Source: a virus. From it: DNA of 32,006 bases. How positions within the stretch are numbered: position 1 is the first letter of the stretch; every line of letters begins with the position of its first letter. The translations under genes were made by a program, and so were the position numbers. The stretch is taken from the IMG/VR virus record IMGVR_UViG_3300037069_000924, positions 1-32,006 of that record. One strand, written 5' to 3'. Positions 17,696 to 24,088 of this stretch are shown piece by piece. The notes under the pieces were generated by a model. The model saw nothing but the letters and a program-made list of their open reading frames with translations, had not been told where the DNA came from and ran no database searches.

Positions 17696-18310
17696 TTATT
17701 CTTGAACCACCATAGCTATTTCTGAGAATAGCAACTTAACATACTTTTTACCACCAAGATAATTGAACTCATAGTTTTTGTCATCTATGGTCAATACGAG
17801 GTCACCAACCTTAATCGGGTGCTCGTCGTGGTGTTTAGGCTTGTTGTGTGGGACGTGCGTAATCCTGACCTTTAGCGCCTCTTTCTTACCACCGCCAATG
17901 ATAATACCGCTTGGACGAACTTCCTCTGGTGTATACAGGGATTCGGCTAAATACAAGCCATCCACCAATTCTATACTTTCATCATCGTTGATTTTAAAGA
18001 AGATGAAGTCGGTAGATATGACCGTACCGTAGTCCATTATCTCAGCCGTTTCATAAGCCATGTAGTGAACGAACAGCCTATCTCCCTCTTTGTAGTTATG
18101 ATTGGCGCTCGGGTGTATCACAGTACAAATCTGAGGCTTTGTTTCAAGGTAATTTAAATTTTCATGATACGTTGTGGTAGCCTCCTCGTCCCCTTCTTTT
18201 GCTACCCACAAATCAGCCCTTACTATTTCTAAGCCATTTAAACCAACTGAAAGTGTTTTGTTGTGTGAGGCATCAAAATCGACAGAAATATTGTTATGAA
18301 GTAAGTTCAT
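17696..18310 (-). CDS. Tandem GroES-like co-chaperonin
   Basis: This 204-residue protein appears to contain two GroES-like units. The second is clearer. GLYLAESLYTPEEVRPSGIII (about 118-138) matches the start and mobile loop of GroES, with GIII in place of the chaperonin-binding GIVL; phage T4 Gp31 also uses III. KVRITHVPHN and then HPIKVGDLVLTIDDKNYEF (164-182) with KKYVKLLFSEIAMVV (188-202) match the GroES barrel and C-terminal strand. The first unit has ICTVIHPSANHNYKEGDRLF (61-80) and YGTVISTDFIFFKIN. A co-chaperonin would work with host GroEL to fold the capsid protein. It is coupled to the glycosyltransferase gene by ATGA and precedes the packaging genes by few bases. Confidence 0.6.
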   Translation of the reverse strand: MNLLHNNISVDFDASHNKTLSVGLNGLEIVRADLWVAKEGDEEATTTYHENLNYLETKPQICTVIHPSANHNYKEGDRLFVHYMAYETAEIMDYGTVISTDFIFFKINDDESIELVDGLYLAESLYTPEEVRPSGIIIGGGKKEALKVRITHVPHNKPKHHDEHPIKVGDLVLTIDDKNYEFNYLGGKKYVKLLFSEIAMVVQE

Positions 18311-19275
18311 GATAGTAGCCTCTCCTTTCTTAGTTCATTTATATTAGAGAGCAATAGGTTGGAGCAGATATAGTCCCATGAAGATTGATTATAACCCTTA
18401 AGGATATCTAAACTTATATCTGTTTCCATAATGTCATTGAGAAACTCAAACTTAACTGAGCCTAAATGTTGAAACTCCACCAACTCATTATTTCCAAAAA
18501 AAGCAGCGCCCACGTATGAGGCTTCAATCATTGCTATATTCGATTTACCTTCATTAAATTTAGTGTTACTTAATGGGTGCATCAATATTTGTGGATTAAG
18601 ATTATGAAGGTATTTAAAATACTGCATAAGGCTCATTTGAGATACTGGCTGGTAATTATCCCCGCACCGTTGCTCCATATAGATAAAACGGCACCCAATA
18701 AACTCAAACATCCAGTCCTTGTTGCCGTTAATAGTGGCTATCAAACTATCTGCCACTTCATACACATCAGCCTCATGGCTGCCGCCGCCACGCCATACTA
18801 CCGTCTTGCCATTGGGGTTAAATGGCTTTTTATCCTTTACGGGGAACAGATAATCATTGTGGCAATTAGGAATGATATGGATATTTGAGTTGTACATGCC
18901 AAATGATTTCTTTACGCCTGCCGTCGATACCCATATCTCATCAGCAGTCATCAGGCAATCCAAAATAATAGCCCTGTTTTGTTGGTAGTGCCCGTACATC
19001 GGGTTATACTGGTCTACATTCAGCACATCATCGTCAAAGTCTATGATAACCCTTAAACCACACTCCTTAGCCAACTTAATCAGCGCAAGGTCATTACCCG
19101 ACGAAGGGCGTTCCAATAGCAGTATATCATAGCCAATAAAGGTTGACCAATCAATCTGTCCCGCCATTGGTTTGTAGGTAACCTCAATATCCTTGGTAAG
19201 GTACTGTAATGGCGTTAAACGATAAAAAGCCGTCGCATCGGACGGCCATTGTGTGATGTATAATAGTTTCTTCAT
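18307..19275 (-). CDS. GT-B-type glycosyltransferase (GT4-like)
   Basis: A 322-residue enzyme that should transfer a sugar from a nucleotide donor. The N-terminus MKKLLYITQWPSDATAFYRL is the first beta strand and loop of a GT-B Rossmann domain. RVIIDFDDDVL (75-85) and ADEIWVSTAGVKKSFG (111-126), then HIIPNCHND (133-141), are typical of phage and bacterial GT4-like proteins. The donor domain has TVVWRGGGSHEAD (158-170) and HPLSNTKFNEGKSNIAMIEA (233-252), with a conserved acidic residue near the sugar-nucleotide site. It overlaps its neighbours by ATGA on both sides, so it is the fourth member of a coupled cassette. The acceptor is unknown. Confidence 0.75.
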   Translation of the reverse strand: MKKLLYITQWPSDATAFYRLTPLQYLTKDIEVTYKPMAGQIDWSTFIGYDILLLERPSSGNDLALIKLAKECGLRVIIDFDDDVLNVDQYNPMYGHYQQNRAIILDCLMTADEIWVSTAGVKKSFGMYNSNIHIIPNCHNDYLFPVKDKKPFNPNGKTVVWRGGGSHEADVYEVADSLIATINGNKDWMFEFIGCRFIYMEQRCGDNYQPVSQMSLMQYFKYLHNLNPQILMHPLSNTKFNEGKSNIAMIEASYVGAAFFGNNELVEFQHLGSVKFEFLNDIMETDISLDILKGYNQSSWDYICSNLLLSNINELRKERLLS

Positions 19276-19979
19276 AATTTCTGAAATACTTTGATGTGGA
19301 CTACGTTAAACAGGAACTTATAATTCTCATTGCCGTTCATATAGGCGTTAACCGCATCGGTGACGGGTTGGATACCCTGGAAGTATCCCCACTCCATGTG
19401 AAGGTCATTGGCACAGTCGTCAACAATCAGGTAGCCGCCTTTCTTAACCATAGTCCCGTAAAAGAATAAATCGCTCTCTATAACATCCTTGGTATGCCCA
19501 CCGTCAATGTAGACCACATCGTATGGCGCTGTTTCTCGTGCTTGTCTGATAATATCCAAATTGGTGCTTAAGCCGTGATATATGATGTAATCTTTAGGGA
19601 TAAAAAAGGTATCATGCAACTTTTCAATATCGGAACGGTAGTCGCTTTCCCAATGTCCATCAGAACTATCGAGCGGGGTTACTCCGTATCTGGCTATTTT
19701 ACGCCCCGTAGCAGACGATAACATCTTAACCAATGATAATATACTCGCTCTAAAAACACCAACCTCTAAGAAGCTAAAATCAGCAGGCATTTCATCAATG
19801 ATTATTTTCCATAGCCAATGAAACGACCGCTCTCCAAAACCGAAGGCGTTGGCTTCAATGAAGTCACGATGAGCCTTTAACCACTCACACTGATTAACGT
19901 TGGTGGTAAAGGCATTGTTAATCGCAGTGTGCCAAGTTGGGTCGTCTTTCCAGTTTATAGTTTCTTCGTGTACTGTCAT
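19272..19979 (-). CDS. SAM-dependent methyltransferase (class I, sugar-type)
   Basis: A 235-residue class I methyltransferase. FSFLEVGVFRASILSLVKML (69-87) is the glycine-containing SAM-binding motif I. ARYGVTPLDSSDGHWES (96-112) follows the second strand. PYDVVYIDGGHTKDVIESDL (152-171) and KKGGYLIVDDCAND (179-192) are the metal/substrate-side motifs of Methyltransf_24-like O-methyltransferases that act on sugars. It lies between glycosyltransferases and is translationally coupled to both by ATGA, so its substrate is probably a sugar added by them; modification of the virion or of the host surface are equally possible. The specific product cannot be read from the sequence. Confidence 0.75.
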   Translation of the reverse strand: MTVHEETINWKDDPTWHTAINNAFTTNVNQCEWLKAHRDFIEANAFGFGERSFHWLWKIIIDEMPADFSFLEVGVFRASILSLVKMLSSATGRKIARYGVTPLDSSDGHWESDYRSDIEKLHDTFFIPKDYIIYHGLSTNLDIIRQARETAPYDVVYIDGGHTKDVIESDLFFYGTMVKKGGYLIVDDCANDLHMEWGYFQGIQPVTDAVNAYMNGNENYKFLFNVVHIKVFQKL

Positions 19980-20623
19980 TTTAGTAATTCTAATACTTTG
20001 GTCATGTCTGTCCTACCGTTCCCGTGTATGAAGATAGGTGTATTCCCCATGATGTGTAAACGTCCGTCTTTATACTCATACTCGCCATCTTCAATAAAAC
20101 TATAGCTGTTAAACACGTTTTGAAACCTGTCTAAATGGATTCCCAAAAACGTGTTTAAATAATTTTTAGTCATCCATAATTGGTCGTCGTCTGAGTGTTT
20201 CGGTGGGAGGGTTTCAAATAACGAAATAAACGTGAGCGAATGGCTATAGTATAACCCGCTATTGATATACTTAAATGGACTTCTTGTTTCTGGGTATTGG
20301 TCTGCCAATTCTTTTTTAGGCCAACAGTTTTTCTCAGCTGAGCAAAGCATCAACTCGCTATATGGAACCTTACTCAAAAACTCTGCCTCATCTGACAATA
20401 CCACAACATCATTAGCATCGCAGAAAATAAAATGCTCTATTTCTGGGTGCTCTTTAAGATACTCGTATGTTTTGATTATTTTGGTTCCAAATCCCTGCCA
20501 AATACAAGGTATCACCTGAAAATCCCATCCGAACATAGTAAGTGAACCGATTAGGTTATGAACTCCCTGATTGGTCGGGTCGCTCGTTACGGTTATCACT
20601 TTTATCTTAGAATCCGCCATCAT
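19976..20623 (-). CDS. PLOD-like (procollagen-type) glycosyltransferase
   Basis: With start MMADSKIKVITVTSD at 20623 the protein has 215 residues; a longer frame to 20734 overlaps the preceding gene by 128 bases and its extra N-terminus is not homologous-looking. Motifs match the glycosyltransferase domain of lysyl hydroxylase (PLOD) and related proteins. They are HFIFCDANDVVVLS (64-77) with the metal-binding Asp pair, LMLCSAEKNCWP (91-102), KYINSGLYYS (118-127), SDDDQLW (144-150) and TPIFIHGNG (195-203). Known relatives add galactose or glucose to hydroxylysine or to glycan chains. This phage version lacks any hydroxylase domain. The start overlaps the previous stop by 17 bases. Confidence 0.75.
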   Translation of the reverse strand: MMADSKIKVITVTSDPTNQGVHNLIGSLTMFGWDFQVIPCIWQGFGTKIIKTYEYLKEHPEIEHFIFCDANDVVVLSDEAEFLSKVPYSELMLCSAEKNCWPKKELADQYPETRSPFKYINSGLYYSHSLTFISLFETLPPKHSDDDQLWMTKNYLNTFLGIHLDRFQNVFNSYSFIEDGEYEYKDGRLHIMGNTPIFIHGNGRTDMTKVLELLK

Positions 20624-21359
20624 AGTAGTAGTTAAGTTTACCCGACTGGTATGACTCGCATAATTGTGTGATAGTCCCAATGTATTTACCAGCTTCGTCC
20701 TGCTTCCATTTGGTATAGGTTGTGCCGCCATCATCCAAGTGCGTTATTTTGATATGTGGTAAAAAAGCATTTTTAAACCCTGCGGCTAACGACCTCGCCG
20801 AGAACAAAACATCGTCTCCGCCATAGTAATCACTCGGCTGGTTCATGTAACCTACTTTATCAAGCATCAATGGGTTGAACGCTGTGCAGGTGCCGATAAT
20901 GTCATCACATATCTCCAAATTGCCCTCCATGTGGGTACGGTAAGCGGGGTTCTCGTGGCTTGGGTTCTGCCACACATCGGAGCGTTTAAGTCCGCAAATA
21001 CCAATATCGGGTCGGTCTGTAAATACCTGTTCCAATTCTTCTACCCAACCTGATTGGTGCCACGTGATATCGTTATCCGACTTAAAACAAACCTCTCCTT
21101 CTTTTCTTTGGGATAGCGCCAAGTTAATCCCACGAGCAGTCCCGATGTTTTCTTTAAGGGTTATAAGGGTAGTATTGTATGTGCTTTTCCTAAAGCCAGA
21201 TAGAATTTTTTTTGTGGCTACGCAAGAATCATTGTCAATTAAAAATACCCGATGTTTTTGTAAATCTACCGTATCATACAGTGATAAAAGCATCTCCTGA
21301 GAATACTTTGTTCTGCCGTTTTCTTCTGTATCGAAAAAAGTGATTGCTATTAATCCCAT
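20607..21359 (-). CDS. GT2-like glycosyltransferase (GT-A fold)
   Basis: A 250-residue family-2-like enzyme. The nucleotide-binding strand (RVFLIDNDSC, about 37-46) is followed by LKENIGTARGINLALSQ (68-84), a common GT2 motif. SDNDITW (94-100) is the DxD-type metal-binding site, and GGDDVLFSARSLAAGFKNAF (180-199) includes the acidic catalytic-base region. HIKITHLDDGG near the end supplies a late His/Asp. A Cys/Thr pair at FNPLML gives the usual acceptor-loop position. It is the first large gene of the sugar-modification cassette and is preceded by a TTG-N20-TATGTTTG promoter-like site. The sugar and acceptor cannot be told. Confidence 0.78.
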   Translation of the reverse strand: MGLIAITFFDTEENGRTKYSQEMLLSLYDTVDLQKHRVFLIDNDSCVATKKILSGFRKSTYNTTLITLKENIGTARGINLALSQRKEGEVCFKSDNDITWHQSGWVEELEQVFTDRPDIGICGLKRSDVWQNPSHENPAYRTHMEGNLEICDDIIGTCTAFNPLMLDKVGYMNQPSDYYGGDDVLFSARSLAAGFKNAFLPHIKITHLDDGGTTYTKWKQDEAGKYIGTITQLCESYQSGKLNYYYDGGF

Positions 21360-21463
21360 AATGAAATAATTAATCCAGCGACCACAAGATGAGAATTATC
21401 GCGAAACAAAGCACATGATGAACAGGTCGCTGGAAAGTCTTTAATATTTTTGTCGTTCTTCAT
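21350..21463 (-). CDS. Possible very small leader protein before the sugar cassette
   Basis: A 37-residue frame starts at 21463 with a good A-rich context (AAAAAAATG) just after the promoter-like site, and overlaps the GT2 start by 10 bases. It contains TCSSCALFRD, a CxxC-type pair, then hydrophobic LVVAGLIISLW. An inverted repeat lies inside it. It could be a real small protein or a coupled leader for the GT2-like gene; a chance frame cannot be excluded at this length. Confidence 0.35.
   Translation of the reverse strand: MKNDKNIKDFPATCSSCALFRDNSHLVVAGLIISLWD
21375..21433. repeat. 9-bp inverted repeat with a 41-base loop
   Basis: CCAGCGACC (21375-21383) and GGTCGCTGG (21425-21433) are perfectly complementary. 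The structure lies between the promoter of the sugar cassette and the GT2 start, so it would be in the leader RNA and could affect translation. Confidence 0.6.
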
Positions 21464-21480
21464 TTTTTTGTTTCGCTCAC

Positions 21481-21511
21481 CAAACATACATTTTGTATTT
21501 CAAAAAAGCAA
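21481..21511 (-). promoter_or_regulatory. Promoter of the sugar-modification cassette
   Basis: The minus strand reads TTG (21511-21509), 20 bases, then TATGTTTG (21488-21481), which matches the Bacteroidetes -33/-7 consensus. It points leftward to 21463 and the GT2-like gene, in a 217-base divergent region. Confidence 0.6.
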
Positions 21512-21523
21512 ACCTATAACAAG

Positions 21524-21576: not shown

Positions 21577-21849
21577 ATGGCACTTTCAATCAGAATCACT
21601 CAGGTTGGCTCAACAGCCCCTACCCCTAAGCAGTACACACTGCAATCTCCGTCTTTAGACAGGTATCGTATGACCTCAACAATTGTTGATTATGGCGATT
21701 ACACCGACACTACACCGCCGCAGAATGCAGCAGGTATTGTTGCTAATGGGTTCATTTACATTCAGTACCACAAGGATAACGCATGGCAGACTGCAACTAT
21801 TTACACCGCACAAACAGGTGCTCAGTTGAACACATTGGTTGTTGCGTAA
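21577..21849 (+). CDS. Small beta-rich protein, the only clear rightward gene
   Basis: A 90-residue protein with no hydrophobic segment and no recognised family. It begins MALSIRITQVGSTAPTPKQY and is rich in Thr, Tyr, Ala and Gln. It contains many short beta-like stretches (STIVDYGDYTDTTPPQNAAG, GFIYIQYHKDNAWQTATIYT). It has its own TATCTTTG box, an A-rich leader and a terminator, so it is an independent unit pointing against all its neighbours. That arrangement suggests high or differently timed expression. A capsid decoration or other virion surface protein is an inference; nothing in the sequence proves it. Confidence 0.75.
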   Translation: MALSIRITQVGSTAPTPKQYTLQSPSLDRYRMTSTIVDYGDYTDTTPPQNAAGIVANGFIYIQYHKDNAWQTATIYTAQTGAQLNTLVVA

Positions 21850-23158: not shown

Positions 23159-24088
23159 TTAAAAGGCGCATACGCCACAGCTTTGTTTTTGGTAGTTGGT
23201 TTCTTGCTCTGTTCTGCCAAAGTCCATGTGGAATTGGATATCTTCAATGGTTTTAGTTCCCTTAGTTTCTTTTATTAATCTGCCCCAATGCGCTTTCAGT
23301 CTTGCTGATAATGAAACAGATTTCATCCAGTAGTTGTAATAAAAAAACTCAATAGCCAAATAATCATCTTCTTGAAAGTTTTTACAGGGCAGACAATTAT
23401 TGTGACTAAATACTCTCTCTCTCTTTCCTAATTTCTTTTTTATGGATGCTTGACTTTCTTTACTTACCCTATGAAGGTTTTCTACCATAAACTTTATGAA
23501 TTTTTTGTTGTTCCATCGCAAATCATATATTGGCGGATACCAGCCGATTGCTTTCTTTACTATTGTAAAACACCATTCATTGGTCTTATCCGAAATCGGG
23601 AAAAGCTTTTTAACATCCCCTATTTGAACCGACCTACCCTCAACATCATTGTCTGTTTTTTCTGACATGTTTTTAACTCGCCTAATCTCCTCTCTAACAT
23701 AACCAACCAAGTCGGTAGTTATGCCGTTTTCTTTCATATACTCATGCATAGGTATAACCTTTAATATTCTCGTACATGGAGCAATAGCGGGATGTGGTAT
23801 CATCTTTTCTTTCTCAAAAAAGCGGAGCACGCTATTGCGAGTAATCTTAACAACAACCATTGGAAACTTTTCTCGTGCAAATTTTATGAGCGCCTTTACA
23901 AAGGCAAAACTTTCTGGACTATGTTCCTCGAAATGGGCATAATACAAATGAAGTACCTTTGGATAGTATTCTTTAGGCCATAGCGATAGCCAAACCAAAA
24001 CTGCGGCGCTATTTATTCCTGCAGATATACCCACCATGATTTCTTCTTCTGAAAAATCCTCCTGTTGTATAAACATTTCTTGTTGCAT
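23159..24088 (-). CDS. PAPS-reductase-like PP-loop protein
   Basis: A 309-residue protein of the adenine-nucleotide alpha-hydrolase type. The PP-loop is EIMVGISAGINSAAVLVWL (16-34), in which SAGINS replaces SGGxDS. After an HLYYAHFEEHSPES segment (47-60) comes APCTRILK (103-110), the site of the conserved Cys105 seen in phage PAPS reductases. Two further pairs, NNCLPCKNF (231-239) and SCGVCAF at the very C-terminus (303-309), could bind zinc or an Fe-S cluster. Relatives reduce PAPS, adenylate sulfur donors for tRNA or DNA thiolation, or act in DNA phosphorothioation. The context (replication genes) favours nucleic-acid modification, but this is inference. Confidence 0.72.
   Translation of the reverse strand: MQQEMFIQQEDFSEEEIMVGISAGINSAAVLVWLSLWPKEYYPKVLHLYYAHFEEHSPESFAFVKALIKFAREKFPMVVVKITRNSVLRFFEKEKMIPHPAIAPCTRILKVIPMHEYMKENGITTDLVGYVREEIRRVKNMSEKTDNDVEGRSVQIGDVKKLFPISDKTNEWCFTIVKKAIGWYPPIYDLRWNNKKFIKFMVENLHRVSKESQASIKKKLGKRERVFSHNNCLPCKNFQEDDYLAIEFFYYNYWMKSVSLSARLKAHWGRLIKETKGTKTIEDIQFHMDFGRTEQETNYQKQSCGVCAF

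What the first reader, a model, noticed from the sequence alone, without database searches (positions are those of the whole stretch)
18307..21359. Four-gene sugar-modification cassette in the virion half of a phage genome
Seen: a GT2-like, a PLOD-like and a GT4-like glycosyltransferase and a Methyltransf_24-like enzyme follow one another, coupled by ATGA or a 17-base overlap and led by a consensus promoter. Known: these families build or methylate glycans. Inference: the phage assembles a short, methylated glycan. Because the same transcript leads into a co-chaperonin and packaging genes, a virion protein is a good acceptor; the host surface (superinfection exclusion) or hydroxymethylated bases are alternatives.
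Basis: partly seen in the sequence, partly recalled or inferred. Interest (0 to 1): 0.65.

Follow-up and report, generated by a model that had tools for sequence, protein, structure and literature searches.

The report
Phage glycan-building cassette with leader RNA
A phage carries four enzymes that most likely build a short methyl-capped sugar chain, probably on its own virus particles; the same set recurs in unrelated phages just ahead of the DNA-packaging genes, and in the window's phage family its messenger RNA begins with a folded RNA not found in the Rfam library.

Summary
Four same-strand genes, coupled by 17- and 4-base overlaps, encode a GT2 transferase (20607-21359), a collagen-type (PLOD) glucosyltransferase (19976-20623), a sugar-type O-methyltransferase (19272-19979) and a GT-B transferase (18307-19275), and run into a GroES-like gene and the terminase. 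True order: GT2-PLOD-MT-GT4. The PLOD protein keeps the catalytic residues of mimivirus R699, nearly all invariant in 83 homologues; the methyltransferase keeps its D..H and DD motif in 86 of 86; the fourth enzyme models as GT-B (pLDDT 93.7). The set recurs in about 80 viral contigs from two phage groups with different terminases, beside the packaging genes in both, and was not found in bacterial genomes. Related phages swap other sugar enzymes into the same slot. Thymidylate-synthase-type hydroxymethylases are absent, which disfavours DNA glycosylation. Best reading: a short O-methylated glycan, most likely on a virion protein; the acceptor is inferred, not shown. Beyond the finding, the operon's mRNA starts with a ~105-nt RNA pseudoknot absent from Rfam (13 of 15 pairs with compensatory changes, 0/500 shuffles), present in about 20 related leaders, nearly all heading sugar-enzyme operons.

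The parts
21481..21512 (-). Bacteroidetes-type promoter TTTG-N20-TATGTTTG
   Evidence: box position conserved 3-5 nt 5' of the leader RNA in 15 of 23 leaders
21368..21477 (-). Structured leader RNA (pseudoknot): P1 21467-21476 with 21401-21410, P2 21425-21434 with 21374-21383
   Evidence: stem scan, covariation, model hits; no Rfam family
21350..21463 (-). Possible leader ORF of 37 codons overlapping the GT2 start (weak evidence)
   Evidence: open in 8 of 9 leaders, combined shuffle p about 0.03
20607..21359 (-). GT2 (GT-A type) glycosyltransferase; D95-N-D97 motif
   Evidence: Pfam 3e-7; solved relatives to 2e-10; DxD in 78-79 of 81
19976..20623 (-). PLOD-type (collagen glucosyltransferase-like) GT
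   Evidence: Pfam 1.5e-25; R699 and LH3 at about 1e-20; catalytic residues conserved in 83 homologues
19272..19979 (-). SAM-dependent, probably metal-dependent sugar O-methyltransferase
   Evidence: Pfam 2e-6; D159, H162, D187, D188 in 86 of 86; remote PDB hits 6g7d and MycE
18307..19275 (-). GT-B fold glycosyltransferase (GT4-like)
   Evidence: phrog_7162 7e-22; AlphaFold pLDDT 93.7; Foldseek GlgM, MshA, BshA, Gtf3
17696..18310 (-). GroES-like co-chaperonin gene, coupled to GT4; first gene of the operon in cassette-free L003
   Evidence: phrog_3188 5e-5; GroES beside TerL in relatives

Best explanation
The cassette is a phage-specific glycan-assembly module expressed with the late genes. GT2 most likely places the first sugar, the PLOD-type enzyme adds a hexose (alpha-1,2-linked glucose in its solved relatives), the methyltransferase O-methylates a sugar, and the GT-B enzyme adds a further sugar. 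Donors come from the host. The acceptor is most likely a virion protein, so that progeny leave the cell carrying a short, methyl-capped glycan. Shown by computation: enzyme families, conserved catalytic residues, conserved gene order, operon position, leader RNA. Inferred: which sugars, the order of action, and the acceptor.
For: Families and folds. Catalytic residues conserved in 81-86 homologues. Same four genes in 66 loci, in two arrangements, beside the packaging genes in two phage groups with different terminases. Pairwise identities of the four proteins correlate, r 0.90-0.93 over 30 loci. Other sugar enzymes occupy the same slot in relatives. None of the four has a clear membrane segment. 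Precedents: PBCV-1 A064R and A061L build and methylate a capsid glycan (PMC9614988); mycobacteriophages Che8 and Rita carry glycans on capsid proteins (reported in PMC11256854).
Against: No virion protein has been shown to be modified. The late operon would also suit a late host-surface function. The window's PLOD copy has Asn71 where most have Tyr. The first sugar and its attachment site are unknown. No collagen-like acceptor was found in the cassette genomes.
Confidence: 0.55

Rival explanations
1. The enzymes modify a host surface glycan or its precursor late in infection, blocking superinfection or keeping progeny from sticking to cell debris.
For: Phage glycosyltransferases that alter host surfaces are common (general knowledge); a variable slot would suit a contest over receptors.
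Against: No membrane segment in the four proteins; no flippase or ligase-like gene was seen in the cassette; the genes are coupled to GroES and packaging genes.
Confidence: 0.22
2. The enzymes glycosylate a host protein or make a small soluble glycan that helps the phage inside the cell.
For: R699 can make the free disaccharide kojibiose (PMC11838735); a GT4 homologue is annotated putative disaccharide synthase in other phages.
Against: Late-operon position; four coupled enzymes including a methyl cap are more than simple diversion needs.
Confidence: 0.12
3. The enzymes glycosylate hydroxymethylated bases of the phage DNA.
For: Some viral DNA glucosyltransferases appear among structural matches of GT4 (ranks 23 and 30), but as general GT-B neighbours.
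Against: No thymidylate-synthase family enzyme in eight records, with working controls; the PLOD and methyltransferase relatives act on protein-linked or free sugars; alternative occupants of the slot are sugar enzymes.
Confidence: 0.06

Closest known systems
Chlorovirus PBCV-1 A064R plus A061L (capsid N-glycan)
   Same: Viral glycosyltransferases plus methyltransferase that build and methyl-cap a capsid glycan (PMC9614988)
   Different: Eukaryotic algal virus; fused domains; rhamnose; homology to this cassette was not tested
Mycobacteriophage Che8/Rita virion glycosylation
   Same: Phage-encoded glycosyltransferases with glycans on capsid proteins (as reported in PMC11256854)
   Different: Other phages and hosts; relation of the enzymes not tested; no PLOD-methyltransferase module described there
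Mimivirus R699 / human LH3 collagen glucosyltransferase
   Same: Direct homologue of the PLOD-type GT with conserved active site
   Different: No 2OG-Fe(II) hydroxylase family match and no collagen-like acceptor found
Sugar O-methyltransferases such as MycE (3ssm), and 6g7d
   Same: Best solved relatives of the methyltransferase, over the D..H and DD motif region
   Different: Remote similarity only (E 2e-4 and 0.013)

Membership tests
PLOD/LH3-type glucosyltransferase domain | Profile match above the curated cut-off | tested here: met
   GT_PLOD 90.3 bits against cut-off 27
PLOD/LH3-type glucosyltransferase domain | Mn/UDP and acceptor residues of R699 (K62, D83, D86, N138, D163, Q164, H216) | tested here: met
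   K48, D69, D72, N121, D147, Q148, H200 conserved in 82-83 of 83; Tyr85 is Asn in the window's copy
Collagen-modifying system | Lysyl hydroxylase and G-X-Y repeat acceptor in the same genome | tested here: not met
   PF13640 absent in eight records; no G-X-Y run of 6 or more in the genomes examined
GT2 glycosyltransferase | Profile match and DxD motif | tested here: met
GT-B / GT4-like glycosyltransferase | GT-B fold | tested here: met
Metal-dependent sugar O-methyltransferase | D-x-x-H and DD motif of the MycE/6g7d kind | tested here: met
   86 of 86; alignment; activity not tested
Phage virion glycosylation system | Glycan covalently bound to a virion protein | not testable with these tools
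   needs mass spectrometry of virions
DNA base glycosylation system | Hydroxymethylase of the thymidylate-synthase family | tested here: not met
   eight records, controls positive
Any Rfam RNA family (leader RNA) | Match above gathering score | tested here: not met
   only weak sub-threshold hits

The most novel reading that the evidence does not exclude
The leader is a new class of 5'-terminal pseudoknot RNA that controls expression of a swappable glycan locus at the head of the late operon in this phage family, so that a regulatory RNA governs how these phages decorate their particles.
Probability: 0.5. Interest if true: 0.78.

Novelty: new variant of a known kind. Interest (0 to 1): 0.64.

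Why it matters
Glycosylated phage particles are known from few systems. A conserved enzyme module shared by unrelated phages and apparently absent from bacterial genomes would give a general, testable route to phage particle glycosylation, and its swappable slot would show glycan diversification in phages. The leader RNA, backed by strong covariation and missing from Rfam, is a concrete new regulatory element to test. Phage-borne PLOD-type glucosyltransferases outside collagen systems also bear on the origin of that enzyme family.

Tried and rejected
(1) The 90-aa divergent gene as a cassette-specific acceptor: rejected as specific, since a homologue flanks the same slot in cassette-free L003; its structure model is unusable (pLDDT 47.8). 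(2) Collagen-like acceptor: not found in the cassette genomes examined; the only long G-X-Y run is in L013, a distant TerL relative. (3) DNA hypermodification: no thymidylate synthase family. (4) First idea that the leader RNA occurs only with GT2-PLOD-MT: revised; L195 and L168 carry it ahead of other sugar enzymes, L176 has a second copy leading a separate sugar operon, and G014 has a weaker second copy ahead of an HNH gene. (5) Sigma-70 promoter and terminator scans: near shuffle level. (6) Leader ORF: suggestive only, combined p 0.026 as printed (the script used slightly too many degrees of freedom, which is conservative). (7) Single-sequence RNA folding is not significant, z -0.8; that tool does not model pseudoknots. 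(8) The crossing-stem scan gives hits elsewhere (L017, G002 4845), so it was not used alone. (9) An exact-pattern scan for the RNA found only two known loci because the stems vary. (10) Host search: no cassette among the hits in the species-genome collection (best MT 28-29%) and none in 395 Bacteroidota genomes at E <= 1e-20 apart from the same Pedobacter gene.

Full report
Observation. Pfam supports the first three, and PHROGs plus a confident structure model support the fourth as a GT-B enzyme. Downstream come a GroES-like gene, two small genes, terminase, portal and further structural genes. The closest named phages (Cellulophaga phi19:3, Maribacter Panino) have GroES near or beside the terminase but no annotated cassette there. 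The window is a 32-kb record, probably a fragment of a ~72-kb genome; relatives G002 (71,951 bases) and G014 (73,284) carry 127-nt end repeats.

The enzymes. The PLOD domain matches mimivirus R699 and human LH3 at about 1e-20. Mapping the residues reported for R699 (K62, D83, D86, N138, D163, Q164, H216; PMC11838735) onto 83 homologues, with mean identity 39% among representatives, shows them conserved throughout. The stacking tyrosine is an asparagine in the window's copy, a possible local weakness. The methyltransferase keeps D159-x-x-H162 and D187-D188 in 86 of 86; its best solved relatives are 6g7d and MycE, remote; that both are sugar O-methyltransferases rests on my own knowledge of these entries. 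GT2 keeps its DxD.

The module. A scan with the methyltransferase found 82 related stretches, of which 80 were kept. Of 89 loci with any cassette gene, 66 hold all four: 52 in the order GT4-GT2-PLOD-MT and 14 in the order GT2-PLOD-MT-GT4. The second order belongs to the window's phage group (A), where the block precedes GroES, TerL, portal and MCP. The first belongs to a different group (B), mostly with a small terminase subunit gene, a different TerL, a tape measure and a head protease, that is siphovirus-like. Pairwise identities of the four proteins correlate over 30 loci (r 0.90-0.93; within group A alone 0.53-0.90). GT4 differs most between groups (20% identity), so the GT2-PLOD-MT trio is the core. 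A further GT4-based scan added more group-A loci.

A variable slot. In L003 (TerL 76% identical) the slot is empty: the divergent small gene is followed directly by the GroES-like gene. Other relatives hold GT4 alone (L036, L173, L185, L190, L192) or other sugar-type genes: a GT2-like gene plus an FkbM methyltransferase (L168), Methyltransf_23 (L195), a HAD-nucleotidyltransferase (L187), a transaldolase (L184), an extra Methyltransf_24 (L047), and in L176 a multi-gene sugar operon with a hexapeptide transferase. This argues for a glycan product and against DNA as the target. No thymidylate synthase family, NDP-sugar epimerase or 2OG-Fe oxygenase match was found in eight records, with working controls, so the donors are presumably the host's. 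Bacterial genomes gave no close copy.

Directly after the promoter, at 21368-21477, two helices cross: P1 and P2. A column scan of six aligned leaders put these two helices at the top, and pair counts gave 93% paired cells and 7 compensated pairs, 0/500 shuffles. A model built with P1 alone found 18 matches in 23 related loci; one (L005:17538) looks spurious and one (L044) is out of register. On that alignment P1 and P2 together show 13 of 15 pairs with changes on both sides, 59 such cells and a covariation score of 0.576 against 0.186 shuffled. P2, which was not in the model, stands alone at 0.444 against 0.181, 0/500; I chose its columns from this same alignment, so the six-leader result is the more independent one. 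The RNA occurs once in most of the whole records searched, ends 5-18 nt before the first ORF in most loci, begins 3-5 nt after a TAnnTTT(A/G) box in 15 of 23, and is not in Rfam. Group-B loci show no match. It is absent from the slot in L003 and in the GT4-only loci; two relatives carry it ahead of other sugar genes, and G014 has a weaker second copy ahead of an HNH gene. Its role is inferred: a 5'-terminal structure next to the first start codon suggests control of translation or of mRNA stability.

Mechanism and verdict. I commit to a glycan-assembly module (about 0.93) whose most likely acceptor is a virion protein (0.55), with host surface (0.22), host protein or soluble product (0.12) and DNA (0.06) as rivals. 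It works most like PBCV-1 A064R/A061L, viral transferases plus methyl capping on a capsid glycan (PMC9614988), and like mycobacteriophage capsid glycosylation (PMC11256854). Membership: PLOD-type GT domain, met; collagen-modifying system, not met; DNA glycosylation, not met; virion glycosylation, not testable here.

Limits. Contigs are metagenomic and partly redundant, and group-B counts include near-duplicates. Hosts are unknown; Bacteroidota is inferred from the promoter type and the TerL relatives. RNA E-values come from a short calibration, and shuffle counts do not correct for relatedness of the sequences.

Noticed in passing
21368-21477 (-); homologues in L004, L005, L024, L035, L039, L044, L046, L047, L168, L171, L175, L176, L188, L191, L193, L195, L197: Covarying pseudoknot RNA at the 5' end of the operon's mRNA, not in Rfam.
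   Followed up: yes
21577-21849 (+): Divergent 90-aa gene with its own short transcription unit; a fast-evolving homologue flanks the same slot in nearly all group-A phages, with or without the cassette. Function unknown.
   Followed up: partly
L176:2343-8392: A second leader RNA heads a separate sugar operon with glycosyltransferase-like genes, DUF5672 and a hexapeptide transferase.
   Followed up: partly
L162:2510-7173 (MW202801): Another phage has glycosyltransferase, PhyH dioxygenase, methyltransferase and NodB-like genes annotated between its major capsid protein and its stabilization protein.
   Followed up: no
23159-24088 (-): PAPS-reductase-like gene (phrog_424) in the window.
   Followed up: no
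L120:11933-12754 (-): Radical SAM protein in a close relative of the window's phage.
   Followed up: no
L013:2202-3365 (+): ORF with 32 consecutive collagen-like G-X-Y triplets in a distant TerL relative.
   Followed up: no
L005:20435-20956 (+): Three tRNA genes inside the structural region of this relative; none in the window.
   Followed up: no
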